In this document: positions 5,955-23,011 of the stretch, piece by piece
Layout: each line of letters opens with the position of its first letter
How positions within the stretch are numbered: position 1 is the first letter of the stretch
From: Phycisphaeraceae bacterium
Lineage (GTDB): Bacteria > Planctomycetota > Phycisphaerae > Phycisphaerales > UBA1924
NCBI GenBank assembly: GCA_019636795.1
Contig: JAHBWW010000002.1
Location: 310,001-374,000, forward strand
Reading direction: 5' to 3'
Length of the DNA stretch: 64,000 bases
Position numbers and translations under genes: made by a program
Notes under the pieces: model-generated
What the model was told of the DNA's origin: nothing
Seen by the model: only the letters and a program-made list of their open reading frames with translations
The model's database searches: none

Positions 5955-6341
5955 ATGCAACCGGTTGAAGATCCAATGCAGCTTCGTGCAATCCAGTATA
6001 GATCCATTGCCAAGCTGCACATGTGCGTCGGATGTGAGTCCAAGATCGAAATTCTTCGAGTCCTCGCCCTCGAGCCCTGTAATGTCAAGAGTCTTTCGGA
6101 TACTCTTGCCCTGAGCCAGTCTTCCATCAGCCATCATCTCGCTGCCATGCGCAACTGCCATCTGGTTCTCTCCGTGCGCCGAAGTCAGATCAGTGTGTAC
6201 CGGCTGAGTCCTCTGGTCTCTGTTGTGGAACACCCAGACTGCGTGAGTGTGGAAGTGCGCTGCGAAATCGATGATTCATCGGTTCGGGTCACTGTCCCGG
6301 TTCGACACACGCTTGTGCATGCTCAGGGTTCAGTATTGTGA
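5955..6341 (+). CDS. ArsR-type winged-helix transcriptional regulator
   Basis: A 128-residue protein with an ArsR-like winged helix at about residues 25-85: a helix-turn-helix with the recognition-helix pattern LSQSSISHHLAAM, followed by a wing (LVLSVRRSQISVYRL). Family members repress neighbouring operons and often sense metals or redox state. Cysteines at about residues 24, 27 and 42 (C..C..., LEPCN) could bind a metal, although they are not in the classic ELCVCDL position. The C-terminal 35 residues are a short beta-like extension. It points away from gspD and its end overlaps the converging RyR-like gene by 12 bp. Confidence 0.78.
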   Translation: MQPVEDPMQLRAIQYRSIAKLHMCVGCESKIEILRVLALEPCNVKSLSDTLALSQSSISHHLAAMRNCHLVLSVRRSQISVYRLSPLVSVVEHPDCVSVEVRCEIDDSSVRVTVPVRHTLVHAQGSVL

Positions 6342-6797: not shown

Positions 6798-6867
6798 GAT
6801 AAGGCCTGTTTCGTTGCTCCACGGTACGGGAGGCGCCGTTGATCGGGCCGCGGGCGTGCCAGCCGCA

Positions 6868-7617
6868 TTACGGAGCGAGCGCGGTATGGAATGCAGCCTT
6901 CACTCCATCGAGGTGGGCATTGAGAAACGCCGCAGCCTGCGCGACCTCGGTGCGGCTGTTTTCCGAAGCAATCAGGTTCGTGCACGCTGAATCCGGTTCC
7001 AACTCACGCTGAGCGCAGGCACGGACCTGCGACAACGCATCGCGGAGTGCTACCCATGCCGATTCCGATCGTTCTGCGGCCGAGTACTGAACTGGCAGGC
7101 CCCAGCGGCGAGCAGACGTAATCCGCTGGATGCTGTTGACGACCGGCGACGAAAGATGCGACGTTGCCGCGGAGAAAATCCCGGCATGCGCGGCGGCGAT
7201 CTGGGATTCGAGGGCTGCTGCCGATGTCCGGGCCTGTGACAGCGCGCTGGCCGCTCCTTCGGGCGCGGTCCCTGACCGCAGCGCACGCTCGAGCGCCGCG
7301 ATCTGCCTGCGAGCGGCTGCGAACTCCACCTGGGCGAGCAGCAGTTCATCATGCACTTCTGCCAGCGCTTCACCGGCCTCCTGCATCAGGGTGGCGACCT
7401 GATTTGGCTGCACACCGGCAGCTGCCAAGTTTTCAGGTTCCAGTCCCAGGCGATGGAGCAGCACGCCCAGGTCTGATGTCGAAGGCTCGGACGAGGCCAT
7501 CCCTCGCGGAATCGCCAGTGCCGAAAGGATGACCAGCAGCGACAGCGTCAGCGAGCCGATAGTCAATGAGAGAATGTTGCCGGGCTTGGACAGAGCCGAT
7601 CGAATCAATGGTGCCAT
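6868..7617 (-). CDS. Membrane-anchored coiled-coil protein, unknown function
   Basis: A 249-residue protein I do not recognise. One membrane segment at about residues 15-38 is followed by an Ala/Glu/Arg-rich, heptad-like stretch (about 75-140, EVHDELLLAQVEFAAARRQI) that should form a coiled coil, and then a mixed helical C-terminus with two cysteines. It is probably an inner-membrane protein with an extracytoplasmic helical domain. It lies upstream of the RyR-like gene on the same strand and diverges from the RHS gene 146 bp away. Confidence 0.6.
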   Translation of the reverse strand: MAPLIRSALSKPGNILSLTIGSLTLSLLVILSALAIPRGMASSEPSTSDLGVLLHRLGLEPENLAAAGVQPNQVATLMQEAGEALAEVHDELLLAQVEFAAARRQIAALERALRSGTAPEGAASALSQARTSAAALESQIAAAHAGIFSAATSHLSSPVVNSIQRITSARRWGLPVQYSAAERSESAWVALRDALSQVRACAQRELEPDSACTNLIASENSRTEVAQAAAFLNAHLDGVKAAFHTALAP

Positions 7618-7763
7618 GGTGGCGGCCTCCAGATGGGTTCATTGAACGAAGTAGACCAGATCGAAGACTGCTTGTCCAATGTATGAACCATGATTCATCA
7701 TTCATATGCTTGCGTCGGGGCACTCGAATCGTCAGGATGGGCAAGCCGAATGGCTGGAGGTCC

Positions 7764-10700: not shown

Positions 10701-13700
10701 CGCACGCTCGCCGTCGGTCTCTACACCTCTTCCTCGGGCCTCTCGGCTGCGACGGATCCGACCTCGCACACGACCAGCCGCACGGCCCTGTCCGAGACCT
10801 TCCACGACGAGCTCGGCCGCACCTGGCGCAGCCGCCAGCACAAGATCACGCAGTCGGGCGAGTACACCGGCGACAGCGCCGACACGCTCGATGCCGACAC
10901 CTGGTACGACGCCGAGGGCCGCACCGCCAAGCATCAGGGCCACCAGCTGACCAAGACCGCCTACGACCGCATCGGCCGCGCGACGCACTCGTTCGTCCTC
11001 GCCGCCGTCAACGATTCGTCCTACGCCGACGCCCTCACCATCACCGGCGACATCGTGGTCGAGCAGTCGCAGACCGCGTACGCAAGCGACATATCCGATC
11101 TCGTGCTCATGAGCGTCGCTGTCAGCCGTCTGCACGACGACTACGGCTCGGGCGAGACCACCGGCTCGCTCAACACCACCGCCGAGGCGCTCGAGGTCGA
11201 AGCGGCCAGTCTCGAAGGCCGCGCCTCCATCACCGCCTACTGGTACGACGACCGCGACCGCCTCGTCACCACCGCCCACTACGGCGACAACGGCGGCAAC
11301 GACTTTGACCGCGACGCACTCTCCGAACCCGCCTACTCCGACGCTTCGCGCATCGTCACCAAGGTCGTCTACGCCGACAACGGCCTCCAGTTCGAATCCA
11401 TCGACCCCGCGGGCATCGTCACGCGCACGCTCTACGACGACGCCGGCCGCACCATCGCATCCATCGCCAACTACACCGGCGGCTCGACCACAAGCCCTGT
11501 GCGCGACCACGACCTCTACACCCGCTACACCTACCAGAACGGCCTGCAATCCACCATCTGGGTCGATCTCAACGGCGACGGTGACAACGACATCGGCGAC
11601 GACCAGGTCACCCGCTACATCTACGGCGTGCGCAAGGGCACCGACCCGCACGAGTCACGCCTCAGCCACAACGGCCTGCTCCGCGCCGTCATCTACCCCG
11701 ATTCGACCAACGAGGCCGAAGACGCGACCGACATCGACACCGACGATGACGACGTGGTGACGTATTCGTACAACGCGCAGGGCCAGCCGATCCGCACACG
11801 CGACCAGGCCGGCAACGTCATCGAAACCGACTACGACACCGCGGGTCGCGAGACGCACCGGCGCGCCACCGATGTCGCGGACGATTTCGACGAGATCGTG
11901 CTCCGCATCAGCACCACCTACCTCCCCCGCGGCCTTGTGGAAAAAGTCACGCAGTACAACGACGCCTCCCCAGGATCGGGGAGTGTCCTCGATGAAGTTC
12001 TGTATGACTACGATGATTGGGGCATGGTCGGGTCAATCACCCAGGATCACGACAGCGCCGTCGCCAGCGGCGGGACGCAGTACACCGTGTCCTATACCTA
12101 CACCAAGCTCGCCCAGTCCGGCGGGCGGCGGGCCGTCAATCTCCTCTCGATGACCCTGCCCGATTCGACGGTCGTGCTGTACGAATGCCTGAGCAATGCC
12201 TTCGGCCTCGGCGGCGACAGCAAGCTCGGCCGCGTCACGCGCGTCAAGGTCGGCGCCACCTACGTCGCCGAATATGAATACCTCGGCCTGAACCGCGTCG
12301 TGCGGACCGAACTGCTCCAGCCCGAGTATTACAAGACGCTCGCCGCGAGCAGCGCCTACGACCGGCTCGACCGCTTCGGCCGCGTCACGCGCGATGTCTG
12401 GACAGCCGATCGCACCACCGACATCGACCTGGTCGATTTCGCCATCACCTACGACGAGCGCAGCAACATTACCTCGGTGCAGGACCACGTCCATCCGACG
12501 ATGGGCCACGCCTACCAGATGGACGACCTCTCTCGGTTGGTTGACGCCCAGCGCGGCGTGGTGGCGTCGGGCAGCATCACGACGCCGAACTGGATCGAGC
12601 AGTGGGACCTGGGCGTGACCGGCACCTGGAACGGGCACCGCCTCGACCTCGACGGCGACAGCGACTACTCCGAACCTGACGAGATCGACGCGAGCAACAC
12701 CTTCACGCTGGCCAACGCCTGGCTCGAGCGCGACATCGCGGGCAAGAGCAAGATCGACCTCGCCCACGACCCCGTCGGTAACCTAACAAACGACGGCCAG
12801 CACTACAAGTATGTCTACGACCCCTTCGGCAGGCTGCGGATGGTGCTCGATCAGAGCGATGACCTCGTGGCTGAGTACCGCTACAACGGCCTCAACCAGC
12901 GGATCACCGCCCACTTCGATACGAATGGCGTGGATGGTGTCACCGGTGCCGACGTGGTGAGCCATTTCGCCTACGACTCCCGCTGGCGGATCGTCGCGCG
13001 CTACGAAGACACGAACAGCGACCCAACGGAGCAGTTTGTGTTTCACAACGCGGGCCTTGCTTCGACCGGCTCGGGCAGTTATATTGATGCGGTGATGCTC
13101 CGCGACCGCGACACGACGGCCAACGGCACGCTCGACGAGCGCGTCTACTACCTCCACAACTGGCGCAGCGATATCGTCGCCCTGATTTCGCACGCGGGCA
13201 GCCAGATCGAGCAGGTGCGGTATGAGCCGTATGGCACGCCGTTCGGCATCCCGGCGGGTGATATTGATGCTGATGGCAAGGTGACACAGGATGATATCGA
13301 TCAGGCGACAGCATGGTACTCCGGCTCGGCGTACGATGTCCGCGCCGACCTGGACATGAACGGCTCGGTGAACCTCTCTGATATTACATATATTGCCGGC
13401 AACAAGGTCCTCAATCACGAGACCGGCCGCGGCGTGCTGAGCCTTGAACACATCGCCAGCCGCAAGGGCTACGCAGGCTACGAAAGCCTGGCAGAACTCG
13501 AAGCCAGCGGGGTGAAGTGGGATGTGAGGAACAGAGTCCTGCTGTCGGAGATCGGAAGTTGGAATCGAAGGGATCCGCTGGGGTATGTCGATGGGATGAA
13601 TCTGTATGAATATGTAATGTTGATGCCGATTGTTCACGTCGATTCGGACGGCCAGAAGTGTGGAACAGTTTGGCAGAGGCTGGCATGCACTGGCCTCGTC

Positions 13701-14087
13701 ATTGCGGCATCGGCCGAGCTGACGGCCTGCATGTTGCTGGTCGCCAGTTGTGTGTCGGGCAATCTCGCAGCATGCCCAGCGGCAGTTCCGGTCTGCTGCT
13801 CTGCCGTTGCATCCCTATTGGAAGCCCTCAACTACTGTCGAGCCAAATGCAGTCCCAATGGCCCTCTTTTTAGTCCGTCAGCCAACTCCATCATTCTCAC
13901 CGTTCTCGGAATTTGCTCAAAACTTAGTGGATGGAGGAGCATTGTGGATCTCATTCGCCGGGGGATCCCCGGTGTCGCTGTCGCAATGTTTTATCTTGAT
14001 GAGGAGGATGATCAGCATGCATTCGGCGGAACATTTGTCACACATGTGTTTGCCCCCCGTCCGCTGGGCCCATTGCATGAAAATTGA
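7764..14087 (+). CDS. Giant exported RHS/YD-repeat protein with EF-hand inserts
   Basis: A 2107-residue protein. Start placed at ATG 7764 (or 7767), directly behind a GGAGG at 7756-7760 and giving a signal peptide (MILRVLSASCIAIAVPTSLA); an upstream in-frame ATG has no such support. An N-terminal beta domain is followed by many YD repeats (YDAxGR..., RYTYQNG...) that build the RHS cocoon shell, and a conserved RHS core end (RDPLGYVDGMNLYEYV) at about 13570-13615. After the core comes a unique 155-residue tip rich in Cys and hydrophobic residues with membrane-like helices. Asp-rich EF-hand/dockerin-like loops interrupt the shell, notably at 13258-13400. RHS proteins are polymorphic toxins or cell-surface proteins whose tip determines activity; this tip is not one I recognise. 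An exported single-gene form without VgrG or PAAR fits planctomycetal YD proteins. Confidence 0.9.
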   Translation: MMSMILRVLSASCIAIAVPTSLAEDILHIHDDSLTAYLAGPTAVQGFQPTALQRAVNIDGTQRRPVPFGLMLAANPSDPGTMSTQVAGVEAATGEVFLYDTHIALPSHGVTWTVGITLNQMQGADVEGYQGRNWFQISQPELVFVGDPNDPEPDDMVYIVFGSSYVEYSRFDSSDVFRGVNGVAGAVEHVADGTSEPDLYILRDARGTKAVFFGFDGDAGNAEGQLWFIEDPAGNKAYVGDATTASTAITNGYDAEGRMVYAYDASGRRYHYEYDFVDRLESVTAAVKSGSNWLDPTTVARVDYNYYEEGDPVEELVHGNPGSLQEVTITTPLSGPDIVVTKHYRYWLNTESAVDDALKYIVDAEGVRTLEIIQTDPFTGEYLAAPDDLTFTKHVSHSYNYDTGRRVTSTWQNGECGCSGPANGIHAIAYSTNGGWSASTGYTSGWKHRTTVARPDGSYEIVYTDELGQVIARVISDADPGTASNFWVTGVERDAAGRVIEIRPPASSTGYTYSTNTFTWSTSAGLIRVFGRETSGNLTGLVRQTGWKIGTSGTTSLVSSQGYMYTHSSIDYGPPVLSVGDYDILRPMVRWNWTYADSNVTTAKAWNDATTTTASRTLMEYTFHSGDAALMPETLTTTMPPVSTGNNGSNSSNVVSEFRDEAGRRVWQKTASGKINYWKYVDGRLATQVQDADTGKPLFSGMTIPSGFDSDGSDDEFHRVTSYAGSDTPGGSSTGPDGHTSETFVTVLADRRIVRLGIPKKVAGSPDTYHGPVSYTVTNHAGQTEFSGSIVFSGGSTTGAPDTWIDDEEDEPFDAVLVGTLFAVSTNLYNETGGTLLESHTYHDLSTPPAYDSTFYLYDTMGRRVAVKDPTGTISHTTYDAIGRPSASFIGTNDHDHPGVPFAVEFETEGDSDMVMTSETIYDAGAAGGNSLVTKTTAFVQDSGTDKRETTYAYDARHRRILTVNPQAPHSVVKLDNLGRTLAVGLYTSSSGLSAATDPTSHTTSRTALSETFHDELGRTWRSRQHKITQSGEYTGDSADTLDADTWYDAEGRTAKHQGHQLTKTAYDRIGRATHSFVLAAVNDSSYADALTITGDIVVEQSQTAYASDISDLVLMSVAVSRLHDDYGSGETTGSLNTTAEALEVEAASLEGRASITAYWYDDRDRLVTTAHYGDNGGNDFDRDALSEPAYSDASRIVTKVVYADNGLQFESIDPAGIVTRTLYDDAGRTIASIANYTGGSTTSPVRDHDLYTRYTYQNGLQSTIWVDLNGDGDNDIGDDQVTRYIYGVRKGTDPHESRLSHNGLLRAVIYPDSTNEAEDATDIDTDDDDVVTYSYNAQGQPIRTRDQAGNVIETDYDTAGRETHRRATDVADDFDEIVLRISTTYLPRGLVEKVTQYNDASPGSGSVLDEVLYDYDDWGMVGSITQDHDSAVASGGTQYTVSYTYTKLAQSGGRRAVNLLSMTLPDSTVVLYECLSNAFGLGGDSKLGRVTRVKVGATYVAEYEYLGLNRVVRTELLQPEYYKTLAASSAYDRLDRFGRVTRDVWTADRTTDIDLVDFAITYDERSNITSVQDHVHPTMGHAYQMDDLSRLVDAQRGVVASGSITTPNWIEQWDLGVTGTWNGHRLDLDGDSDYSEPDEIDASNTFTLANAWLERDIAGKSKIDLAHDPVGNLTNDGQHYKYVYDPFGRLRMVLDQSDDLVAEYRYNGLNQRITAHFDTNGVDGVTGADVVSHFAYDSRWRIVARYEDTNSDPTEQFVFHNAGLASTGSGSYIDAVMLRDRDTTANGTLDERVYYLHNWRSDIVALISHAGSQIEQVRYEPYGTPFGIPAGDIDADGKVTQDDIDQATAWYSGSAYDVRADLDMNGSVNLSDITYIAGNKVLNHETGRGVLSLEHIASRKGYAGYESLAELEASGVKWDVRNRVLLSEIGSWNRRDPLGYVDGMNLYEYVMLMPIVHVDSDGQKCGTVWQRLACTGLVIAASAELTACMLLVASCVSGNLAACPAAVPVCCSAVASLLEALNYCRAKCSPNGPLFSPSANSIILTVLGICSKLSGWRSIVDLIRRGIPGVAVAMFYLDEEDDQHAFGGTFVTHVFAPRPLGPLHEN
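12543..13244 (+). repeat. 702-bp direct repeat, copy 1 (RHS core)
   Basis: Encodes the C-terminal RHS shell from DAQRGVV to RYEPYGTPF. It aligns without net gaps to 14474-15175 (constant offset 1931). The only strongly diverged patch is an EF-hand-like loop near 12920-12960. The identity is far higher than selection on protein would give, so duplication or gene conversion is recent. Confidence 0.9.
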
Positions 14088-14120
14088 GGATTTGTCATCA
14101 AATTAGGTCGTGAGGTGACT

Positions 14121-14237
14121 ATGCATTATCTGCATCAGATTGCTGCAGTGATTGTTTTTCTTATCGGGTTATCGTTTACGATAGAAGTGATATCTGATGC
14201 ACTCAGCATTGGCCGCCATCGCCACCGGGAGCGATAG
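14121..14237 (+). CDS. 38-residue single-membrane-segment peptide
   Basis: A short ORF 33 bp behind the RHS stop, with a GAGGTG ribosome site at 14112-14117 and an ATG start. The product has a hydrophobic stretch at about residues 7-25 (IAAVIVFLIGLSFTIEVI) and a basic His/Arg tail. Polymorphic-toxin genes are typically followed by small immunity genes, and those facing membrane-active toxins are often small membrane proteins. That role is inferred from position only. Confidence 0.4.
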   Translation: MHYLHQIAAVIVFLIGLSFTIEVISDALSIGRHRHRER

Positions 14238-14324
14238 CATTTCTCACCAAAACGATGTTATGCAGGATTATTGGTTCGCAGGATGGTGCCATTCTTTTCA
14301 TGTCTTATTCGTTGCGAGAGTGTT

Positions 14325-14462
14325 ATGATTTGGGACGTTCTACTAGTCTTGGGTCTTGTTCAGATATTCGTCGGTAAGATATATTTGTTTTGTGTCGGAG
14401 CTTCCGGTCGCAAACTTGCACTTCGCGATGGCAACCCAAAGCGTGACAGTCGTGAGCATTGA
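14325..14462 (+). CDS. 45-residue hydrophobic peptide
   Basis: ORF starting at ATG 14325 (longer in-frame start at 14271 without a clear ribosome site). The product has a membrane segment at about residues 4-25 (VLLVLGLVQIFVGKIYLF) and a basic tail. It ends exactly where the second RHS cassette begins and overlaps its TTG codon. It could be a small immunity-type membrane protein or the degraded end of a lost tip. Low-GC composition differs from the flanking RHS genes. Confidence 0.35.
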   Translation: MIWDVLLVLGLVQIFVGKIYLFCVGASGRKLALRDGNPKRDSREH

Positions 14463-16129
14463 GCCGCCTCACGGACGCCCAGCGTGGCGTGGTGGCGTCG
14501 GGCAGCATCACGACGCCGAACTGGATCGAGCAGTGGGACCTGGGCGTGACCGGCACCTGGAACGGGCACCGCCTCGACCTCGACGGCGACAGCGACTACT
14601 CCGAACCTGACGAGATCGACGCGAGCAACACCTTCACGCTGGCCAACGCCTGGCTCCAGCGCGACATCGCGGGCAAGAGCAAGATCGACCTCGCCCACGA
14701 CCCCGTCGGTAACCTAACAAACGACGGCCAGCACTACAAGTATGTCTACGACCCCTTCGGCAGGCTGCGGATGGTGCTCGATCAGAGCGATGACCTCGTG
14801 GCCGAATACCGCTACAACGGCCTGAATCAACGCATCACCGCCCACTTCGACACCAACCTCGACACCGTCGTGGACGGCGACGATGTGGTGAGTCACTTCG
14901 CCTACGACGCCCGCTGGCGGATCGTCGCGCGGTACGAAGATGCGAACAGCGACCCAACGGAGCAGTTTGTGTTTCACAACGCGGGCCTTGCTTCGACCGG
15001 GTCGGGCAGTTATATTGATGCGGTGATGCTCCGCGACCGCGACACGACCGCCAACGGCACGCTCGACGAGCGCGTCTACTACCTCCACAACTGGCGCAGC
15101 GACATCGTCGCCCTCATCTCGCACGCGGGGAGCCAGATCGAGCAGGTCCGGTATGAGCCGTATGGCACGCCGTTCTGTCTGCCTGCGGGTGATATTGATT
15201 CCAACGGCGACTTCGACGCGAGCGACGTGGCGGCGATGACCGGAAGTTATGATGTCCGCAAGGATGTTACAATGGACGGCACGATCGACTACGACGACGT
15301 GTACGCCGCGGCTAGCATCGCGGGCAGCTACCAATACCTCGGCCGGGGCGTGCTGTCGTCGCCAGCGATTCAAAGCCGTAAGGGGTATGCGGGGTATGAG
15401 AACCTGGCTGAACTCGAAGGCAGCGGGGTGAAGTGGGATGTCAGGAATCGGGTGTTGTTAAGCGACATCGGCTCGTGGAACCGGCGCGACCCGCTGGGGT
15501 ACGGGCATCAGGGGCGCTTCCACCGGGGGTCCGGTGCTCCACTCTCGCTCGGCAGCGCTTGGCCCCAGACAGCCGAGTGCACGGGCGGAACGGGTGTGCA
15601 GTCCAGTTCGCCAACTACCCATTGCGATGTGTTGTGCACAGTGATGTGTGACAGCCGCCCAATAAGTGGCGGTGTCACCATGTGCTACGGGCCCCACAGT
15701 TTGAGATGCCTATGCAGAGAGAACCTTGGGCGCCTCGAAGAGCCTTTGGATCAAGGTGGCTGTTTTCAACAGCAGTTTGAATCGTGCATAGAGTCTCATG
15801 AAGACATTCACATAGGCGACATAGACTGCTCTCACAATCCGCCGGGTAACATTCTTGGTCCAGGTCATCTCCCGTGGCGGGATGCCGCTTGTGGTCGCTC
15901 TTGTTCAGAGTGCGATGCCTACACCTCGCATGAGACCTGCATGGAGAACATTGACTGCAGCGTCGCACGCTGCGGCTCCGAGGACCAGTCGCAAAACTGC
16001 GTTCGCCTCAAGGATGGCTATATTTGGGGTGTCAGAAGGGCCCGTGAACACTGGTGCGACAGGTGCGACCTCTGTCGTAGCCAAGTTCAACCGAAGGATG
16101 CGGAGGGGGGTATTAAAAGTGGGTCATGA
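14459..16129 (+). CDS. Orphan RHS 3' cassette with Cys-rich HExxH tip
   Basis: A 556-residue reading frame that lacks the N-terminal thousand-plus residues of an RHS protein; the only available start is TTG 14459, so it may be silent. Residues about 6-240 duplicate the RHS core of the upstream gene (702-bp repeat), followed by a different dockerin-like insert (about 244-285) and the shared core end (RKGYAGYE, GSWNRRDPLGY at about 339-348). The tip (349-556) has about 26 cysteines and an H447-E448-x-x-H451 motif bracketed by C443 and C457, as in zinc metallopeptidase-type tips. The arrangement matches orphan tip cassettes that can be joined to the full-length gene by recombination in the shared core. 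Confidence 0.65.
   Translation: MSRLTDAQRGVVASGSITTPNWIEQWDLGVTGTWNGHRLDLDGDSDYSEPDEIDASNTFTLANAWLQRDIAGKSKIDLAHDPVGNLTNDGQHYKYVYDPFGRLRMVLDQSDDLVAEYRYNGLNQRITAHFDTNLDTVVDGDDVVSHFAYDARWRIVARYEDANSDPTEQFVFHNAGLASTGSGSYIDAVMLRDRDTTANGTLDERVYYLHNWRSDIVALISHAGSQIEQVRYEPYGTPFCLPAGDIDSNGDFDASDVAAMTGSYDVRKDVTMDGTIDYDDVYAAASIAGSYQYLGRGVLSSPAIQSRKGYAGYENLAELEGSGVKWDVRNRVLLSDIGSWNRRDPLGYGHQGRFHRGSGAPLSLGSAWPQTAECTGGTGVQSSSPTTHCDVLCTVMCDSRPISGGVTMCYGPHSLRCLCRENLGRLEEPLDQGGCFQQQFESCIESHEDIHIGDIDCSHNPPGNILGPGHLPWRDAACGRSCSECDAYTSHETCMENIDCSVARCGSEDQSQNCVRLKDGYIWGVRRAREHWCDRCDLCRSQVQPKDAEGGIKSGS
14474..15175 (+). repeat. 702-bp direct repeat, copy 2 (RHS core)
   Basis: Second copy of the RHS-core repeat (see 12543-13244). 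Homology begins at a GACGCCCAGCG block just after the TTG start and stops at the GTTC before the EF-hand insert. Recombination between the copies would delete the first tip with the two small membrane-peptide ORFs and place the Cys-rich tip on the full-length RHS protein. Confidence 0.9.
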
Positions 16130-16245
16130 CCCTTAAAAGTTATCATCACGCATGATGATGCGACAGGCCAATCCTTATCCTCCTGTATAAGTTGTCAGTC
16201 GAATTGTACCAATTCATTAAGAACTTATGGCGTAACGGAGGCCTA

Positions 16246-16998
16246 GTGATCCTAAGAGCGCGAAGTCTTCTGGCAATCATCGTCCTCGCCAACCTACTTG
16301 CGATTGGAGCCAGCCTACTTGCTTCCATTCTGCGTTCTACTGAGCCTCCAGCGGTATCACGATCTCAGCAATTTCTCTTGCCGCTGACGGAGTGGCCGTG
16401 GCAGGAAGATCGTAGCCTGGGTCGGCATCAGGTCCACGTCAACAGTTGGGCGAGCCATGTCCATTGGGCTTCTCCGGGAGATCACTTTTTAATTGTCGCA
16501 CTTAGCTATATGCGCTCACCTACGCATGCGACTCCAGCCGACGCTCGGGAACTGCCTAGGTGGGTTCGTCATCGCAACCTACAGTCATCACTATTTTCAG
16601 ACGATCGAGGGCCGCTCTATTGGCGAGAAGACGGATTTGGCTTCCCTTTTGTATCACTGTCATGCACCTGGGTTGGGTTCGCACATCAAGGGGAGTTACA
16701 GTTGATTGACGGCCAGAAGATCCGCGTGGGGGAACAATTTGCTGTCATTCCTACGCGCATCATCTGGACTGGGGTAATTTGCAACGGACTTTCCTATGTG
16801 GCATTGTGTTGCGGTCCGCCTGTATTGTGCATGTTCGGCAGGCAATGGCTGCGCCGTCGTCAGTCACGGTGTTTGCATTGTGGCTACAACTTGCGAACTG
16901 CTTCGAACAAGTTGAATCAATGTCCAGAATGTGGTATGTTGACCCGGGATGATGTGACGGATAGTAGAGGCAATGATTCTGCGTCAGAGGAGTGGTAA
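16246..16998 (+). CDS. Membrane protein with C-terminal zinc ribbon
   Basis: A 250-residue protein. Start set at GTG 16246, which has GGAGG at 16237-16241; a TTG at 16192 would add 18 residues without a ribosome site. One membrane segment lies near the N-terminus (about 8-30) and a second at about 192-212, followed by a basic stretch and a C-terminal zinc ribbon (C..CGYNLR...CPECG, four cysteines). This two-membrane plus GYNLR-ribbon layout is widespread in planctomycetes and has no assigned function. It follows the orphan RHS cassette by 116 bp, so an immunity or accessory role is possible but unproven. Base composition is less GC-rich than the core genes. Confidence 0.65.
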   Translation: MILRARSLLAIIVLANLLAIGASLLASILRSTEPPAVSRSQQFLLPLTEWPWQEDRSLGRHQVHVNSWASHVHWASPGDHFLIVALSYMRSPTHATPADARELPRWVRHRNLQSSLFSDDRGPLYWREDGFGFPFVSLSCTWVGFAHQGELQLIDGQKIRVGEQFAVIPTRIIWTGVICNGLSYVALCCGPPVLCMFGRQWLRRRQSRCLHCGYNLRTASNKLNQCPECGMLTRDDVTDSRGNDSASEEW

Positions 16999-17152
16999 CA
17001 TTGATATGAAGTGGTGGGGTGGCATCTGTGAGCAGGCCGTTGTCAAGCCCCAGTGGTTGATTTTCTTCACTGATCCATGCCGTCTTTCCCCCTCGCGAAG
17101 CAAGGTGTTCTTGTGGAGTTCGATCTTGCCGGGCCCAGCCCTTCCGCTTTTC

Positions 17153-17534
17153 CCCGTCGGCAACATGACCGACGACGGCCAGCACTATGAATATGTCTAC
17201 GACCCCTTCGGCCGGCTGCGCAAGGTCGTCGAGCGCGGCAGCAGTCCGGCGGTGCTCGTGGCCGAGTACCGCTACAACGGCCTGAACTTCCGCATCGGCC
17301 AGCACACCGACCTCACCGACGACGGCACCAACGATCTGCCCGACGGCGTGGTCGATGCCGATGACCCGTGGTTCTGGTTCTGTTATGACGAACACTGGCG
17401 GATCGTTGCGACCTTCCGATCAGACGACGAACATCCGAAGGAAGTGTTCATCCATCACAACGCGGGCCTTGACGGGGTTGGTGGAAGTTCGTATATTGAC
17501 AGCATCATCATGCGTGATCGCGACGCCAACACGG
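17153..17534 (+). pseudogene. RHS core fragment (relic)
   Basis: An open stretch encoding a piece of RHS shell, from GNMTDDGQHYEYVYDPFGRL to DSIIMRDRDAN. It resembles residues about 85-195 of the orphan cassette but is clearly diverged and carries a longer Asp-rich loop, so it comes from a different RHS gene. No start, core end or tip remains; similarity stops abruptly at about 17534. It is a third relic in this RHS array. Confidence 0.75.
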
Positions 17535-18008
17535 TGTGGTTCGAGGAGGCGGATTCGACCCGCGAAGAACGCTCCGCCTCCAGGTACAGGCCGTCAACCC
17601 GCCCCGACCAGCCGAGAGGGCCCTCCAGACCCCACCAAGGCCTTTTCGGCCTTGCCCAGCGTTTCGAAGAGGGTTCCTCTCGGAGACGCAAGCCGAGAGC
17701 GCGGCCGCCAACGCCATCCCGCGTTTGACCCCGGAATCTCCGTCGTTTCCGCCACCCAGCCCCGACGCTGGAAACCGGCCGGGCCGTAAAGCAAAACCGG
17801 CCCACTTTCGCGAGCCGGTCAGAAGCTCGGCCTGATCGGGCTGTGACGAGAACCCCGGGGGTTCGCGTCGCCCTCTCGGTTGAACCTCTCGAACTCTCTC
17901 CGACACTCGGTTAGCGCCTCCGCCGATTTGACGCGAGGTGCCGATCAGGGGTGAACAGGGATCGGGACCCTCCCGAAACGGAGAACATTCCGAGGTTGGG
18001 ATGCTCCG
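17535..18008. other. Gene-free junction between RHS relic and TIR cluster
   Basis: No credible gene is seen in 474 bp; the open frames here are arginine/proline-rich shadows. A perfect 9-bp inverted repeat GGAGGCGGA/TCCGCCTCC (17545-17553 and 17573-17581) sits exactly at the end of RHS similarity. Its minus-strand loop contains GGGTCGAATCC, close to a tRNA T-loop, but no complete tRNA can be folded. A further hairpin is listed separately. This looks like a recombination junction. Confidence 0.5.
17791..17820 (-). terminator. Possible terminator of the minus-strand TIR gene
   Basis: A 6-bp stem ACCGGC/GCCGGT (17796-17801 and 17814-17819) with a 12-nt loop is followed on the minus strand by TTTT. 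It lies 190 bp downstream of the stop of the minus-strand TIR gene. The stem is short and the T-run weak. Confidence 0.35.
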
Positions 18009-18419
18009 TCATTGAACAGCGGCATCCGCTGGCGGGGTGCCCCCTGCGAGCAGCGTCTGCACCGAGGGCCAGCGATAGGTCCAGATCTTGTCATCCGCAC
18101 GGGAGTGCTTCGGGCGAGTTGGCGTTCCGATCCGAGTGCCCGAGAGAAGGAAGTACCGCCGCCCGAGCCTCTGTGCCGCTTGTACCTCCGTCGCAACCCC
18201 GGTCGCCTGATGCGTTTGTTCACCACACAGTACGATCACGAAGTCCGATTCCCTGATCAGTCGCTCAGCCTCCAGCACCCAACGCTCCGGAACAGCTCGG
18301 CTGATGGAGTTATCGATGAACTCCCAGGGGCAGTCGGGGCGCCGTGACTCGGCGACCAGGTTCTGCTTGACTCCGAGGTCGTCGTAGTCGAACGCGATGT
18401 ACACCTTCTTCTTGGCCAT
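18009..18419 (-). CDS. ThsB-like TIR-domain protein A (divergent)
   Basis: A 136-residue protein, essentially one TIR-like (ThsB/DUF1863-type) domain: strand A VYIAFDYDD at 6-14, strand with FVIVLCG at 60-66, helix with the putative catalytic Glu78 (GVATEVQAA), and strand RRYFLL. Start at 18419, with GGAG seven bases upstream; the longer frame is unsupported. TIR proteins of Thoeris systems use NAD+ to make cyclic-ADP-ribose-type signals on phage infection. It is a paralogue of the TIR protein at 18962-19351 (shared MAKK start, FDYD, VIVLCG, GVA-E, YFLL) and is divergently oriented, 100 bp from the rest of the cluster. A DTC? or other sensor part is not visible; the protein is a bare domain. 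Confidence 0.75.
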   Translation of the reverse strand: MAKKKVYIAFDYDDLGVKQNLVAESRRPDCPWEFIDNSISRAVPERWVLEAERLIRESDFVIVLCGEQTHQATGVATEVQAAQRLGRRYFLLSGTRIGTPTRPKHSRADDKIWTYRWPSVQTLLAGGTPPADAAVQ

Positions 18420-18519
18420 TGGGACACTCCGTGAAAACACGTTCTCCGCATGTATAGTAGTGCGAGTTCTGTCCGCCCAGCGCCCAATTGGGCTCACGTC
18501 TCGATTTTGTCGAGGGTCC
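18420..18519. promoter_or_regulatory. Divergent promoter region of the TIR-caspase cluster
   Basis: This 100-bp region lies between two divergent TIR genes. It contains a perfect 12-bp palindrome GCCCAATTGGGC at 18482-18493, a small hairpin CTCGA-TTTTG-TCGAG at 18500-18514 just before the ribosome site of the plus-strand gene, and TATA-like sequences near 18450-18458 readable as -10 elements on either strand. The palindrome is a candidate operator for joint control of both arms. Confidence 0.45.
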
Positions 18520-18933
18520 ATGCCCACGTTTTGCACCTATTGCGTGTTCGTCTCTCACTGTTGGGAGTTCAACGCCAACTGCCACACCCTGGTTGACTGG
18601 TTCGACGACGAGCCTCGCTTCGACTGGAAGAACTTCAGTGTGTCGGATGAAGCCCCGATGTGTGAGGGCAAGAACTTCGAGAAGCGGCTCCGCAAGCGCC
18701 TCGGCGCTGCCGACATCATGGTCGTGATCGTCGGCATGGAGATCGCCCATCGACGCTGGATGGCATGGGAGATCAAGTGGTCTCGCATCCGAAGCATCCC
18801 GATCTTGGACGTCATGCCTAATGGTGCAGAGCGTGTGCCCAAGGTCGTGCTTGACTCCGGCTGCCCGATTGTCCGGTGGCGGCGTGATTCGGTGATCACC
18901 GCCATCCGCCAATTTGCACGCGACCAGCGATAG
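18520..18933 (+). CDS. ThsB-like TIR-domain protein B
   Basis: A 137-residue TIR-like protein of the DUF1863/ThsB type. It has strand A CVFVSHCWEFN (8-18), the KNFSVSDEAP loop, a central strand MVVIVGM (67-73) followed by a helix with the putative catalytic Glu84 (RRWMAWEIKW), strand PILDV, and a late RVPKVVLDSG segment with a short C-terminal helix (IRQF). It belongs to a different ThsB branch from proteins A and C. Start at ATG 18520 behind GAGGG; the longer frame is unsupported. First gene of the plus-strand operon; 28 bp to the next TIR gene. Predicted role: NAD+-derived signal production on phage sensing. Confidence 0.78.
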   Translation: MPTFCTYCVFVSHCWEFNANCHTLVDWFDDEPRFDWKNFSVSDEAPMCEGKNFEKRLRKRLGAADIMVVIVGMEIAHRRWMAWEIKWSRIRSIPILDVMPNGAERVPKVVLDSGCPIVRWRRDSVITAIRQFARDQR

Positions 18934-18961
18934 AATCGCCCCACAGACTTCGGAGGCTCGC

Positions 18962-19351
18962 ATGGCCAAGAAACGCGCGTTCATCAGCTTCGACTACGAC
19001 CACGATGAGGGGGCGAAACTCATGCTCGCCGGGCAAGCCAAGCATCCGGACACGCCGTTTGACTTCACGGATGGTTCCGTCAAAGACCATCTCACCGGCG
19101 ACTGGAAGGAGAAGGTCCGTCGCCGCATGGACTACATCGATGTCGTGATCGTCTTGTGTGGCCAGTACACGCATCTCGCCAACGGCGTCGCGGCCGAGTT
19201 GAGTATCGCACGCGAGAAAGGCAAACCCTACTTCCTGCTTGCGGCCTACTCGAACAAGAACTGCACCAAGCCGACCACGGCGCAGCCCGGCGACAAGGTG
19301 TACAACTGGACATGGGACAACCTCAAAGCCCTCATAGGCGGGGCGAGGTAA
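18962..19351 (+). CDS. ThsB-like TIR-domain protein C
   Basis: A 129-residue TIR-like protein: AFISFDYDHD (6-14), KVRRRMDYIDVVIVLCG (51-67), helix GVAAELSIA with the putative catalytic Glu79, strand KPYFLLAAY, and C-terminal NWTWDNLKALI. Start at ATG 18962 with GGAGG at 18952-18956, five bases away. The stop is 6 bp before the caspase start, so the two are probably translationally coupled, making this the TIR most tightly linked to the effector. Paralogue of protein A on the other strand. Confidence 0.8.
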   Translation: MAKKRAFISFDYDHDEGAKLMLAGQAKHPDTPFDFTDGSVKDHLTGDWKEKVRRRMDYIDVVIVLCGQYTHLANGVAAELSIAREKGKPYFLLAAYSNKNCTKPTTAQPGDKVYNWTWDNLKALIGGAR

Positions 19352-19357
19352 TCCGCC

Positions 19358-20317
19358 ATGCGACGTGCGTTGTGCGTGGGCATCGATTTGTACTCGGTCG
19401 GCGCGCTCAAGGGGTGCGTAGCCGACGCCGAGTCGATGGCCAATGTGCTGCGCAAACACGATGATGGTTCCCCGAACTTCGAATGCCGCCTGTTGGTAGC
19501 CCCGAACAGCGGTAAGGGAGACGCTGTCACGAGATCAACACTCAAACAGGCGATCGATGAGTTGTTTCAGGGATCACCGGATGTTGCGATGCTGCACTTC
19601 TCGGGGCATGGAACGTACAACAACCTCGACGGCTATTTGGTCACGCAGGACAACAAGCAGTATGACGAGGGCGTAGCAATGAGCGACGTCCTCAAGCTCG
19701 CGAATGACTCGAAAGCCGGTGAAGTCGTCATCTTCCTCGATTGCTGCTTCAGCGGGAGCCTTGGGAGCGTCCCCGCAATCGACAACGCCAAGGCGCTGCT
19801 CCGCGAGGGAGTCTCGATCCTGACCGCGAGCCGCAGCGATCAGGTTTCGGTCGAGTCGGCGGGAAACGGTCTGTTCACGTCCCTCGTGGTCGATGCGCTG
19901 TCGGGTGGCGCGATGGACCTGTTGGGTGAAGTCACCGCCCCGAACATCTACAACTTTGTCGAAACGGCGCTCGGTGCGTGGGATCAGCGTCCGCTGTTCA
20001 AATCGCACGTCGCAAAACTCTTGCCGCTGCGCCGGTGCAAGCCGCCGATCGATACGGCGATTCTCAGAGAGTTGCCCGCGCTGTTTCCCGTACCCGCCGA
20101 GGATCTGCCGCTCTGCCCTGAGTGCGAGGCGACTTGCGAGAAGAAGGATGACGAGAAGCACAAAATGTTCTGCAAGCTGCAGGCCCTCAACCGGGTCCAT
20201 CTGGTCGTCCCCGTCGGTGTGGACCACATGTACGACGCCGCGATGCAGTCAAAGGCGTGTCGATTGACCGCCGCAGGGCGCTACTACTGGCGGCTCGCCC
20301 GCGACAACCGTCTGTGA
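19358..20317 (+). CDS. Caspase-like protease, predicted Thoeris effector
   Basis: A 319-residue peptidase C14 (caspase/metacaspase fold) protein. Catalytic dyad: His84 in FSGHG and Cys130 in DCCFSG; fold start RRALCVGIDLYSVGALKGCVADA and the substrate-side segment TASRSDQVSVES are also typical. After the protease domain (about 1-225) comes a linker with a CX2CX11HX3C pattern (C253, C256, H268, C272) that looks like a zinc finger, and a C-terminal domain (about 275-319) ending CRLTAAGRYYWRLA. Thoeris variants in which a TIR-made cyclic nucleotide activates a caspase-like protease (called type IV Thoeris) are known; this operon has the same gene content. The C-terminal part is the likely signal-binding or regulatory region (inference). 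Confidence 0.88.
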   Translation: MRRALCVGIDLYSVGALKGCVADAESMANVLRKHDDGSPNFECRLLVAPNSGKGDAVTRSTLKQAIDELFQGSPDVAMLHFSGHGTYNNLDGYLVTQDNKQYDEGVAMSDVLKLANDSKAGEVVIFLDCCFSGSLGSVPAIDNAKALLREGVSILTASRSDQVSVESAGNGLFTSLVVDALSGGAMDLLGEVTAPNIYNFVETALGAWDQRPLFKSHVAKLLPLRRCKPPIDTAILRELPALFPVPAEDLPLCPECEATCEKKDDEKHKMFCKLQALNRVHLVVPVGVDHMYDAAMQSKACRLTAAGRYYWRLARDNRL

Positions 20318-20890
20318 TGGTGAAGCCCGTCTCTGGTTGAAGCACGGTTCCGATCGCCTGGCCCCCGCACCCCCCGGCTCGGCGGGCCTGCGCGGGCGAG
20401 ACCCTCGCGCTCTCTGGGTCTGGGTTAACAGGTTTGCGGGCAATGGGTGCTCTTGTCTGCAGCTTCGATTTTGGATGTGTTTGGAGCAGATCGGCCCATG
20501 CCAGTGGCGGTGAGGCCAATCGCAGCGAGATCGCAGAGTGCGGGCTGCTGGACAGATGAGCGTCGGCGATGCCTCGTTCCCTTTGCGTCTTCGCGGCGAT
20601 GATAGATCCGAATCAGATGTGATGGCCTATTCATCGTGGGTCTCAGGACTTCGCGGCATCCAGATTCACGCGAAGCCTGCCATCGCCGCTTGACTCATTC
20701 AGAACCGTTGCTGCAAGGATGTTTCAGCCATGAGCATCTGAATCCGGACGGACGTGACATCGGTCAACCTCAGGCAGCAGCCCACCACAATCTGCCGACA
20801 CGCAGGCCTCTCCCCTCTCATTCAAGCGATTGTTACTCTCAGGCAGAAAAACCAACTTTAACCAGCAAATTCTCAGCATTTTTCGCGCAT
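20318..20890. other. Gene-free stretch after the caspase gene
   Basis: About 570 bp without a credible gene. GC-rich inverted segments at about 20360-20405 could fold into a hairpin after the caspase stop. Small open frames on both strands lack ribosome sites and recognisable content. The last 100 bp become AT-rich toward the promoter of the next gene. Confidence 0.5.
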
Positions 20891-20930
20891 TTGCAAACAC
20901 TGCATCTTATGCAGCCTTTATAATACACAT
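20891..20930 (+). promoter_or_regulatory. Promoter giving a possibly leaderless transcript
   Basis: A perfect -10 box TATAAT lies at 20919-20924, only 6 bp before the ATG at 20931. A TTGCAA resembling a -35 box is at 20891-20896, although the 22-bp spacing is too long. Initiation at the usual distance from the -10 box would start the RNA at or next to the ATG. There is no Shine-Dalgarno sequence. Confidence 0.45.
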
Positions 20931-21899
20931 ATGAACCTCACAGCCTCGAAATCCAACTCACCTGATAACGTCCACTATCTCCGATCCGCCATCACGCAAT
21001 TCGAAAATGAAGCCGCGATCTGCGACAAAGCCGCATCGAGTATCGAACCGCAGAATGCACTTCTTTCTTCTGCCCGATCAGCAGCACAGTCTGACCGCGG
21101 TGAGTATCTGTTTGCAACGATTCGTGAACTCTACACGCGAGATTTGCTGCCTGGGTCTGTAGTCACACACCTGACGTGCCAGACGTTCCAAGACATGATT
21201 GATCGCAATGAGCGACAACGGCCATGCCGGCGATGGGGCGGGACAGAGTTTAATTTCACCTTCAACATGCCCGAAGATTCAGCCTGCTGGGCGTTGTTTG
21301 AGGCAGGTGTGGCAGCGTCTCGTTCGTTGATGCTCGATCACTCAGATTGCAGTCTGGGTATTGTCGAGTATGAGCCAGATGTCGATGGGTACTGGTTGTG
21401 CGACGGAGAAAGGATGCCCGATGGCTGGGATCCGACTCTCCTCTTGATCGAAATAAGTGAGACCTTGCCCGCCGAAACACTTCCCCCTGAAGAGCAACCG
21501 AAAGTGGATTTCCGATTCAAACGCTCGTCGCGAATCACCACAGGCCGCGGATTCAGTGCAGAAAAATGGCGCATACGCGAGGCTCGGCGATGCCAAGTCC
21601 GAGCGGCTGTGTGCAGATGGGTCGCCCAAGAGTTGAAGCAGTTTCAGATATTGCTGGGTGATGAAGGAGTCACCACACACTGGCACTCAGTGTGCCAAGC
21701 CGCCAGCCTCCTCAGGAGAGACATTCCGTCTCTCTCCGAGAAAAAGGCCAGAGCTCGTGTATCGATCAATGCTCAGCGCCGCAAGTTTTTCACCAATGGA
21801 AAGCACCGTCAGAAGCTACGGATTGAACCATTCTCCTTTGATTCATGGCGGCTCGCTCAACGAGACAAAGAACTAGATAAGGAAGACTCGAACCTCTGA
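20931..21899 (+). CDS. Unknown protein next to the attachment scar
   Basis: A 322-residue soluble protein that I do not recognise. No signal peptide or membrane segment. It is mixed alpha/beta with cysteines scattered, Trp-rich segments (WGGTEFNFTFN, WHSVCQAASLL) and a basic C-terminal region (about 270-300) rich in Arg/Lys that could touch nucleic acid. Codon use and GC (about half) are lower than in flanking core genes, as expected for cargo of a mobile element. It is the last gene before the tRNA fragment; no integrase motif (R..HxxR..Y) is visible. Confidence 0.65.
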   Translation: MNLTASKSNSPDNVHYLRSAITQFENEAAICDKAASSIEPQNALLSSARSAAQSDRGEYLFATIRELYTRDLLPGSVVTHLTCQTFQDMIDRNERQRPCRRWGGTEFNFTFNMPEDSACWALFEAGVAASRSLMLDHSDCSLGIVEYEPDVDGYWLCDGERMPDGWDPTLLLIEISETLPAETLPPEEQPKVDFRFKRSSRITTGRGFSAEKWRIREARRCQVRAAVCRWVAQELKQFQILLGDEGVTTHWHSVCQAASLLRRDIPSLSEKKARARVSINAQRRKFFTNGKHRQKLRIEPFSFDSWRLAQRDKELDKEDSNL

Positions 21900-21921
21900 C
21901 CGCGCGGTGTTCTTGCGCGGT
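21899..21921 (+). terminator. Hairpin directly after the stop codon
   Basis: A 7-bp perfect stem ACCGCGC/GCGCGGT (21899-21905, 21915-21921) with a 9-nt loop begins at the last base of the stop codon. There is no T-run, so it may be a rho-independent-like stabiliser or simply a structured end. Confidence 0.3.
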
Positions 21922-22048
21922 GCAGACCGCGCCCACACCGCGCTTCGCCCGCAAATTGGCCTTAGCAGACGCAAAGCCCGCATCACTTGCAATCCGCAAG
22001 TAGCGTCCATATCGTCGATTACGCGTTTCGAGGTTGAAGCCTGGGGCG

Positions 22049-22090
22049 TTCCCAAGCTGAATGTCGTCGGTTCGATTCCGATCACCCGCT
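22049..22090 (+). other. tRNA-Gly 3' fragment, predicted attachment-site scar
   Basis: These 42 bp read as the anticodon-loop-to-end part of a bacterial tRNA-Gly: TTCC(C)AAGC, variable loop AATGTCG, T-arm with GGTTCGATTCC, and the 3' acceptor strand CACCCGCT. The matching 5' half (GCGGGTG..., D-arm, left anticodon stem) is missing: the bases before it cannot pair with the acceptor or the anticodon stem. Tyrosine-recombinase elements integrate at exactly such 3' halves and leave a copy at the far end, so this marks the right boundary of the accessory region. The stop codon of the neighbouring minus-strand gene lies inside it. Confidence 0.7.
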
Positions 22091-23011
22091 TTCGAGTTCG
22101 CTCAAGACACCCACTACGTCCCCCGCTGCAACGTCCAGCACTCGATCTCGCGATGCGCGCTTGAGCAACCTCTCCATCGGCTCCGACGCCGGCTCATCCG
22201 ACAACTCAAACGTCGAGTGATGAATCGGCAGCAACCGCCTGGCCCCCATGCCCATCGCCATATCCCACACTTCCTCAGGCGTCGCGTGCATGTGATTCCA
22301 AGGCTCATACGCCCCGATGCCGAACGCCGCCACATCGACCGCACCAAGCGTCTCGAAGATATCCGTCGCTGCTGTATCGCCCGCAAACAGCAGCCGAAGA
22401 TCGCCCGATTCAATCAAGTAACTGCTCACGCCGCGCCGACGGTCCAGCACCGTGCGCGCGCCCCAGTGCCGCGGCTCGACCGCCGTGATCGTCGCATCCT
22501 GCACACGAAACGACCGCCCCGGTGCCAGCGTCACCACGCGAGCAAACCCCGGCGGCACCAGCCCTTCGCACCCCGGCGGCACAATCACCAGCGTCGTCGA
22601 ACACGCAATCTGCATCAGCGTCGGCTTGTCGAGATGATCAAAATGCGCATGTGTCAGCAGCACCAGATCAAGCCCTCGCAGCGATGCTGCGTCCGCTGGC
22701 GCAGGCTGCAACCGCGCCGGGCCCACAATGCGCGACCCGATCTTCATCCCGATCCGCCGACTCAGCACCGGATCGACCGCCAGCGTCAGCCCCTCAAGAT
22801 GCGCCGCAACCCCCGCGTGCCCGAGCCACGCAAGCCCGAGCGCGTGCGAGCGCATCGCCAGCAGATCCAGATCACCCGCTGCATGTTCGCCCCGCGAGCC
22901 CTCAAGAAACGATGACACCAGAACCGACGGATACCGCCTCAGACCCGAGCGAACCGCCCGAACCGATCGCCGAAGCCTCGCCACCGCCGATTGCTGGGGA
23001 TCTGAAGTCAT
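22082..23011 (-). CDS. Metallo-beta-lactamase-fold hydrolase (UlaG/NAPE-PLD-like)
   Basis: A 309-residue MBL-fold protein of the UlaG/NAPE-PLD type. Metal motif THAHFDHLDKPT, a later GDTAATDIFET with the bridging Asp, a final HHSTFEL His, and the early ALGLAWLGHAGV strand typical of this branch. Substrate is unknown; relatives act on phospholipids or sugar lactones. Start taken at 23011 because upstream codons run into the promoter of the divergent cls gene. The stop codon TGA overlaps the tRNA fragment, so the very C-terminus may have been fixed by the integration event or simply overlaps the original tRNA end. Confidence 0.85.
   Translation of the reverse strand: MTSDPQQSAVARLRRSVRAVRSGLRRYPSVLVSSFLEGSRGEHAAGDLDLLAMRSHALGLAWLGHAGVAAHLEGLTLAVDPVLSRRIGMKIGSRIVGPARLQPAPADAASLRGLDLVLLTHAHFDHLDKPTLMQIACSTTLVIVPPGCEGLVPPGFARVVTLAPGRSFRVQDATITAVEPRHWGARTVLDRRRGVSSYLIESGDLRLLFAGDTAATDIFETLGAVDVAAFGIGAYEPWNHMHATPEEVWDMAMGMGARRLLPIHHSTFELSDEPASEPMERLLKRASRDRVLDVAAGDVVGVLSELESG

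What the first reader, a model, noticed from the sequence alone, without database searches (positions are those of the whole stretch)
22049..22090. tRNA-Gly 3' half marks the end of an integrated element
The 42-bp fragment matches a bacterial tRNA-Gly from the anticodon loop to the acceptor end but has no matching 5' half. It borders the RHS/Thoeris region on one side and core genes on the other. Tyrosine recombinases integrate at tRNA 3' halves and leave such scars. With the fragment on the plus strand, the element should lie to its left and the intact tRNA at the far left end. I found no second copy or integrase within the window, so the left boundary is probably outside it or was lost.
Basis: partly seen in the sequence, partly recalled or inferred. 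Interest (0 to 1): 0.65.

Follow-up and report, generated by a model that had tools for sequence, protein, structure and literature searches.

The report
Mobile element parked in tRNA-Gly gene
A 44-base leftover of a glycine tRNA gene marks the right end of a 36-kb piece of mobile DNA that a recombinase inserted into that tRNA gene in a planctomycete; the mechanism is well known, but the cargo, a giant RHS protein gene beside an outer-membrane export gate plus likely phage-defence genes, is unusual.

Summary
Confirmed and sharpened. Window 22049-22092 (44 bp, not 42) is identical to the 3' 44 bp of an intact tRNA-Gly(CCC) 35,861 bp to the left, outside the window (C2:296158-296229), same orientation; E = 2.3e-16 in the 3.49-Mb genome. 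A tyrosine recombinase gene starts 118 bp after that tRNA. The repeat starts exactly at the anticodon loop (TTCCCAA); elements with related integrases show the same 44-bp layout in 3 other genomes, each with its own tRNA sequence. The element is about 35.9 kb: a satellite-like backbone (integrase, primase, small terminase, methyltransferase), likely defence genes (IetAS; TIR plus caspase), and a giant RHS gene divergent from a partial type II secretion operon. RHS lies in front of that operon's secretin in 26 of 31 testable loci (22 of 27 without loci that supplied references) against 0 of 59 short and 0 of 17 long control stretches. The integration is a known kind. The cargo pairing turned up in none of six paper searches and is the most interesting part. 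No same-genus genome was among those searched, and no empty site was seen.

The parts
22049..22092 (+). attR: displaced host 3' half of tRNA-Gly(CCC); first 7 bases (22049-22055, TTCCCAA) = anticodon loop, the inferred crossover region
   Evidence: 100% over 44 bp to C2:296188-296231; identity with a related element at C2:580 kb ends exactly at 22055
21844..22055 (+). right inner end of the element (arm), conserved with another element's right end in the same genome
   Evidence: 76.5% over 213 bp to C2:580118-580329
1..22048 (.). part of the element that lies in the window (whole element C2:296188-332092, 35,905 bp between outer repeat ends; the left 13.8 kb are outside the window)
20931..21899 (+). 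322-aa gene next to the right end, no Pfam or PADLOC match, lower G+C (0.534)
19358..20317 (+). caspase-domain protein (PF00656), likely effector of a type IV Thoeris-like pair
   Evidence: E 4e-17; PADLOC caspase E 2.5e-21
18962..19351 (+). ThsB-like TIR protein, 6 bp upstream of the caspase gene
   Evidence: PF08937 E 1.2e-8
18520..18933 (+). second ThsB-like TIR protein
   Evidence: PF08937 E 2.8e-11
18009..18419 (-). third, weak TIR-like protein
   Evidence: PF08937 E 6.4e-4, 20.5 bits against cut-off 21.2
16973..17728 (+). orphan RHS fragment
   Evidence: 51% over 140 aa to the RHS protein
14459..16129 (+). orphan RHS core and C-terminal cassette with a different tail
   Evidence: 71% over 441 aa to RHS residues 1586-2017
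7773..14087 (+). giant RHS protein (2104 aa) with an N-terminal signal-peptide-like stretch
   Evidence: PF05593 E 1e-5; signal peptide judged by eye; RHS homologues beside the operon in relatives
6868..7617 (-). 249-aa protein between secretin and RHS; similar genes lie in the same place in G006, G029 and G020
6330..6797 (-). RyR-domain protein
   Evidence: PF02026 27.5 bits, cut-off 27.4
3443..5773 (-). secretin (GspD-like)
   Evidence: PF00263 E 1.1e-28, PF03958 E 6.7e-25
1857..3446 (-). secretion ATPase (GspE-like)
   Evidence: PF00437 E 2.8e-110
1396..1860 (-). GspC-like protein
   Evidence: PF11356 E 1.9e-4, below cut-off; same place in complete T2SS operons of relatives
548..1399 (-). 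GspL-like protein
   Evidence: model pLDDT 79, pTM 0.46; best PDB fold matches are GspL/EpsL domains but weak (E 0.026-0.037); operon position
21..551 (-). GspM-like protein
   Evidence: model pLDDT 75.5, pTM 0.56; PDB fold matches: a chain of the type IVa pilus machine model E 9.7e-5, PilO E 2.7e-4, PulL-PulM domains E 0.015
1..24 (-). first codons of the TPR lipoprotein gene that ends the secretin operon (rest outside, C2:309440-310024)
   Evidence: TPR matches seen for the homologue in a second element

Best explanation
The fragment is attR of a 35.9-kb tRNA-integrated mobile element (C2:296188-332092). Its own tyrosine recombinase recombined a copy of the tRNA-Gly(CCC) 3' half carried on the circular element (attP) with the host tRNA gene (attB), crossing over in the 7-bp anticodon loop. 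Shown: exact repeats, orientation, integrase, the same layout in relatives, and two limits that pin the crossover to TTCCCAA. Inferred: the circular form, the direction of transfer, present-day mobility. The element has a phage-satellite-like backbone and carries likely defence genes and an RHS-secretin module as cargo.
For: 44/44 identity to the intact tRNA in the right place and orientation. Recombinase (PF00589 E 3.7e-11; PHROG integrase E 3.4e-29) starting 118 bp from the tRNA, with H-x-x-R, GH and Y residues visible in the sequence (motif recalled). Integrase relatives have a tRNA within 1.5 kb in 25 of 30 loci returned, own locus included (20 of 23, 5 of 7), against 0 of 29 loci of an unrelated gene. 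Exact 44-bp direct repeats starting at the first anticodon-loop base at 3 further elements: G017 and G004 tRNA-Gly(CCC), G012 tRNA-Met. The right-end homology with a related element in this genome stops at the last base of TTCCCAA. No other match to the tRNA better than 12 exact bases (one 17-bp match with 2 mismatches) in the 102-kb stretch. Backbone: primase (PHROG E 1.1e-150), small terminase (PF05119 E 5.6e-22; PHROG E 1.1e-29), DNA methyltransferase.
Against: No empty site was found: no same-genus genome was among the 61 searched, and the flanking genes are not syntenic around the tRNA in the relatives looked at. G+C of the element (0.619) does not differ from its flanks (0.605, 0.617). 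Of 12 relatives' loci searched for a repeat, only 3 showed one; of the other 9, 7 run off their contig, 1 (G046) has no copy in 78 kb, and 1 (G033) has no tRNA.
Confidence: 0.94

Rival explanations
1. Accretion: the 36 kb are two or more elements inserted one after another in the same tRNA gene, with the internal attachment sites lost, so the fragment belongs to an older element than the integrase next to the tRNA.
For: Mosaic content: the T2SS operon is 99.5% identical over 6,290 bp to the one in a second element (C4/C3) that uses another integrase and another tRNA-Gly, while neighbouring DNA differs. G+C varies along the element (0.574-0.662 per 3 kb). The element is longer than the three relatives with mapped ends (6.0-9.8 kb).
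Against: No internal copy of the tRNA end. The right end has the same GGGCG|TTCCCAA junction as the element of a related integrase in G017, though G004 differs there. Another element in the genome shares five collinear blocks from methyltransferase to right end.
Confidence: 0.15
2. The fragment arose by an ordinary partial duplication of the tRNA, unrelated to an integrase.
For: Partial tRNA sequences of other origin exist in the literature (a CRISPR spacer case; PMC9897764, passages).
Against: The repeat starts at the first base of the anticodon loop and ends 2 bases after the gene in 4 of 4 elements with a 44-bp repeat; the integrase is adjacent; the orientation is right.
Confidence: 0.02
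3. A functional unusual tRNA or half-tRNA gene.
For: T arm and acceptor 3' strand are intact; a permissive covariance-model hit spans 22030-22090 (16.6 bits, E 0.99).
Against: Below the gathering score of 29; ARAGORN negative; the 5' half in that alignment is the element's arm.
Confidence: 0.01

Closest known systems
tDNA genomic islands of the Islander database, anticodon-centred (A) subsite
   Same: Intact tDNA, displaced 3' fragment downstream, same orientation, integrase inside, length 2-200 kb, crossover at the anticodon loop (criteria read in PMC4383910, passages).
   Different: Nothing that I found in the integration itself.
Phage satellites (PICI, capsid-forming PICI, P4-like; named from recall)
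   Same: Integrase, primase-helicase and small terminase without a recognised large terminase or tail gene; two elements with related integrases carry a major head protein or a head protease.
   Different: No capsid or interference gene recognised in this element; it is longer than the three related elements with mapped ends (6.0-9.8 kb) and has heavy cargo; no helper phage is known.
RHS polymorphic toxins of the T2SS/Sec-dependent export class (Zhang et al. 2012)
   Same: Giant RHS protein with signal-peptide-like start, different tails, orphan C-terminal cassettes downstream.
   Different: Their Table 1 gives a dash for signature neighbour genes of this class (PMC3482391, passages); here RHS is divergent from a secretin operon in 26 of 31 testable loci.
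Type II secretion system
   Same: D, E, C, L, M homologues, in the order of complete operons of relatives.
   Different: No F or pseudopilin among the element's called genes; the same reduced form occurs in relatives, and some loci keep only secretin and TPR lipoprotein.
Type IV Thoeris
   Same: TIR gene(s) followed by a caspase-domain gene; a passage of PMC12847820 describes TIR and caspase-like effector genes in one operon.
   Different: Two to three TIR-like genes; activity untested.

Membership tests
tDNA-integrated genomic island (Islander criteria) | Intact tDNA and cognate fragment on one replicon | tested here: met
   same contig C2, 44/44 bp
tDNA-integrated genomic island (Islander criteria) | Tyrosine integrase gene inside | tested here: met
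   459 aa, PF00589 43.5 bits, cut-off 27.1
tDNA-integrated genomic island (Islander criteria) | 3' fragment downstream and in the same orientation as the tDNA | tested here: met
   both on +
tDNA-integrated genomic island (Islander criteria) | Length 2-200 kb; fragment reaches the tDNA end; no overlap with a conserved protein domain | tested here: met
   35.9 kb; fragment runs past the tRNA end; it overlaps the last 11 bp of the ORF that ends at 22082, outside that protein's Pfam matches (residues up to 234 of 278)
tDNA-integrated genomic island | Empty site in a close relative | tested here: inconclusive
   no same-genus genome among those searched; flanks not syntenic
Phage satellite | Integrase, replication module, packaging gene(s), no full virion gene set | tested here: met
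   no large terminase, portal or tail family among the Pfam matches of the element's called genes
Phage satellite | Mobilisation by a helper phage | not testable with these tools
   needs infection or induction experiments
Type II secretion system | Secretin, ATPase, F, pseudopilins G-K, C, L, M | tested here: not met
   no F or pseudopilin family among the element's called genes; all 12 T2SSF matches (6 gene-sized places) in the genome are outside the three elements. Host pseudopilins and peptidase were not searched. It may still work with host parts.
Type IV Thoeris | TIR gene in operon with caspase-like effector | tested here: met
   18520-20317, matches to PF08937 and PF00656 on one strand with gaps of 28 and 6 bp
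Type IV Thoeris | N7-cADPR made by the TIR and activating the protease | not testable with these tools
   biochemistry needed

The most novel reading that the evidence does not exclude
tRNA-integrating satellites of Planctomycetota spread a mobile exit gate: a secretin, its TPR lipoprotein (pilotin-like) and, in the commonest form seen, D-E-C-L-M without F or pseudopilins, usually divergent from a giant Sec-signal RHS polymorphic toxin. The cassette would borrow the host's GspF, pseudopilins and peptidase to move the RHS protein across the outer membrane; the secretin-plus-lipoprotein-only form would be the minimal version.
Probability: 0.35. Interest if true: 0.8.

Novelty: new member of a known kind. 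Interest (0 to 1): 0.5.

Why it matters
It turns a 44-bp scar into a precisely bounded 36-kb mobile element, with exact ends, crossover site and integrase, in a phylum whose mobile elements are little described (my judgement; the one search made on them, listed no paper devoted to them). It also shows that the RHS and TIR/caspase genes of the window are cargo. The cargo offers a testable answer to how Sec-secreted RHS toxins might leave a diderm cell: a co-inherited secretin gate.

Tried and rejected
Empty site: the right-flank gene's homologues in relatives (29 loci) have no tRNA within 1.5 kb. Around tRNA-Gly(CCC)-type anticodon arms (49 places matched, 30 with loci, own included), the flank proteins gave, apart from the own locus, only short matches of 33-64 aa (L161, L142) and a 30% match of a more distant right-side gene (L140). 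G006 has a 30%-identical left-gene homologue convergent with the right-flank gene about 0.8 kb apart, but no tRNA between and no wider synteny. G024 has a 26%-identical left-gene homologue about 3.8 kb from its tRNA-Gly(CCC), on the other strand. Too weak to call an empty site.

Arm-type repeats: a 9-bp inverted repeat ACTTGCGGA near both ends is not conserved in the related right end; not used.

Other tRNA-like matches: C2:225418-225458 (80%, E 0.008) and C1:161859-161879 (3 mismatches) show no tRNA and look like chance. C4:430053 is real (see noticed).

Composition as evidence of foreignness: rejected, G+C equals the flanks.

RHS: only PF05593 matches, weakly; the toxin tail was not identified. 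tRNA detection inside the scripts returned nothing because of how the program was fed, and is not used. In the count, 49 of 80 loci were not testable (28 with no secretin found before the TPR gene, 21 with 1.5 kb or less in front of it); 5 of 31 testable loci had no RHS match (L195, L220, L231, L232, L235). Four of the 31 are stretches that had supplied reference proteins (L196, L203, L228, L251); without them the count is 22 of 27. The first control stretches are short (59 loci, 190 kb in all), so a second control of 17 stretches (325 kb) was added: 0 with RHS. The simple RHS count (13 of 80 loci) used closed ORFs only and was replaced. Only the best 80 of 97 relatives were kept. In G030 the RHS assignment rests on a motif count only.

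Papers: PMC4383910, PMC9897764, PMC12847820, PMC3482391, PMC12419801 and PMC13018210 were seen as passages; PMC13232231 as abstract and outline; all others as search listings or as citations. That the RHS-secretin pairing is not in print rests on the searches, in a library without most subscription journals.

Full report
Observation. The 44 bp at 22049-22092 are a perfect copy of the 3' part of tRNA-Gly(CCC), from the first base of the anticodon loop to 2 bases after the gene. The E-value in this 3.49-Mb genome is 2.3e-16. It is no tRNA by itself. An ORF on the other strand ends at 22082, inside the fragment by 11 bp, so by this model the host tRNA and that gene met tail to tail before integration.

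The other end. The window is C2:310001-374000 of the assembly. An intact tRNA-Gly(CCC) lies at C2:296158-296229 on the same strand; copy to copy the distance is 35,861 bp. Its anticodon-arm sequence occurs once in the assembly. A 459-aa tyrosine recombinase starts 118 bp behind it.

Where the crossover is. attL and attR agree from the first T of TTCCCAA rightwards; to the left they differ. A related element in the same genome (C2:~554-580 kb) shares this element's right end (76.5% over 213 bp), and that similarity stops after the last A of TTCCCAA. So the change-over lies within the 7-base anticodon loop, the A subsite of the Islander scheme (PMC4383910, passages). In three other species, elements with relatives of this integrase show exact 44-bp repeats beginning at the same loop base: G017 (9.2 kb apart) and G004 (5.9 kb) at tRNA-Gly(CCC), G012 (9.7 kb) at tRNA-Met; the repeat follows each host's own tRNA sequence. 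Of 12 relatives' loci looked at, these 3 had a repeat; 7 ran off their contig, one (G046) had none within 78 kb, one (G033) had no tRNA. Integrase relatives had a tRNA within 1.5 kb (Gly, Asp, Ala, Pro, Met, Ile, Arg, His, Val) in 25 of 30 loci, own included, against 0 of 29 loci of the right-flank gene.

What the element carries, left to right: integrase; IetA and IetS (PADLOC E 3.4e-71 and 3.3e-33); a DUF1580 protein; a primase-helicase; a methyltransferase with a ParB-like part; small terminase; HARE-HTH and small proteins; a TPR lipoprotein; M-, L-, C-like proteins, ATPase and secretin; a RyR-domain protein; the 2104-aa RHS protein; orphan RHS pieces; TIR-like proteins and a caspase; a 322-aa protein at the right end. 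No large terminase, portal or tail family was matched. Elements with related integrases carry a head protein (G012) or a head protease (G017). I read the backbone as satellite-like; helper dependence is not shown.

The RHS-secretin module. The eight relatives with the best ATPase matches all have the operon, complete or cut by a contig end; in seven a large RHS-type gene lies divergent in front of the secretin, with up to two genes between; in G030 only a motif-based RHS-like ORF lies behind the operon. A scan of a genome collection with the TPR protein gave 80 loci (best of 97), 77 of them titled as planctomycetes and 3 otherwise (L204, L208, L255). In 31 of the 80 more than 1.5 kb are held in front of the secretin; 26 of these 31 have RHS similarity there, all 26 on the opposite strand; without the four loci that had supplied references it is 22 of 27. 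Controls: 0 of 59 short loci (190 kb) and 0 of 17 longer stretches (325 kb). In this genome's second element (C4) RHS is also divergent; in the third (C2:~554-580 kb) it is on the operon's strand. Three forms occur: complete (with F; 15), reduced (D, E without F; 26), secretin with TPR but neither E nor F (11); 28 not assignable. A complete operon of a relative holds T2SSF and T2SSG, which supports the naming of the reduced ones. The M-like model resembles PilO; the L-like model only weakly resembles GspL. All 12 T2SSF matches of the genome lie outside the three elements. From this I infer, but cannot show, that the cassette is an export gate for its RHS partner that borrows host F and pseudopilins. 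That GspC and GspD set substrate choice in known systems, and that TPR lipoproteins can be pilotins, is recalled knowledge. In a phylum-wide sample the TPR protein was found in 27 of 392 genomes at E <= 1e-25 and in 3 viral contigs.

Literature. Zhang et al. 2012 list the T2SS/Sec-dependent toxin class, with RHS among its repeats, with no signature neighbour gene (PMC3482391, passages). Six searches listed no paper that I could recognise as describing an RHS-secretin pairing (listings, and passages of PMC3482391, PMC12419801 and PMC13018210). [quoted passage not shown]

Verdict. Observation confirmed; interpretation supported and completed. The integration itself is of a known kind; the cargo deserves the interest. 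Missing: an empty site, proof of excision, any functional test.

Noticed in passing
L039:5207-5252 (C4:430053-430098) and L040:8155-8226 (C3): A second tRNA-Gly element: a 46-bp exact repeat links the tRNA-Gly(TCC) near the start of contig C3 with a 3' fragment near the end of C4; a different integrase (C3:7077-8201) overlaps the tRNA, and the T2SS operon on the C4 side is 99.5% identical to that of the window's element. The contigs are probably neighbours broken at the RHS repeat (inferred).
   Followed up: partly
L036/L037/L038 (C2:554776-580329): A third related element with methyltransferase, small terminase, T2SS operon and RHS, without recognised left end; its right end stops at TTCCCAA but runs into other DNA instead of a tRNA 3' half; another integrase follows at C2:587392-588720.
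   Followed up: partly
G000:C5:44869-44961 (in L015): A 31-aa remnant (71% identical) of the same integrase family beside tRNA-Pro(CGG), likely a decayed older insertion.
   Followed up: no
window 18009-20317: Two or three ThsB-like TIR genes with a caspase gene, resembling type IV Thoeris.
   Followed up: partly
window 6330-6797: RyR-domain protein on the same element as TIR genes; a 2026 preprint abstract describes phage RyR-domain proteins that degrade TIR-made signals (PMC13232231). Possible self-control or counter-defence.
   Followed up: no
L238, L240, L241, L244, L245, L249: Secretin directly followed by the TPR lipoprotein gene, with a divergent RHS gene and no E, C, L, M between: the smallest form of the module.
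   Followed up: partly
L268: A viral-collection contig holding the secretin operon beside genes in the same order as a stretch of genome G002: the module may also ride on prophages.
   Followed up: no
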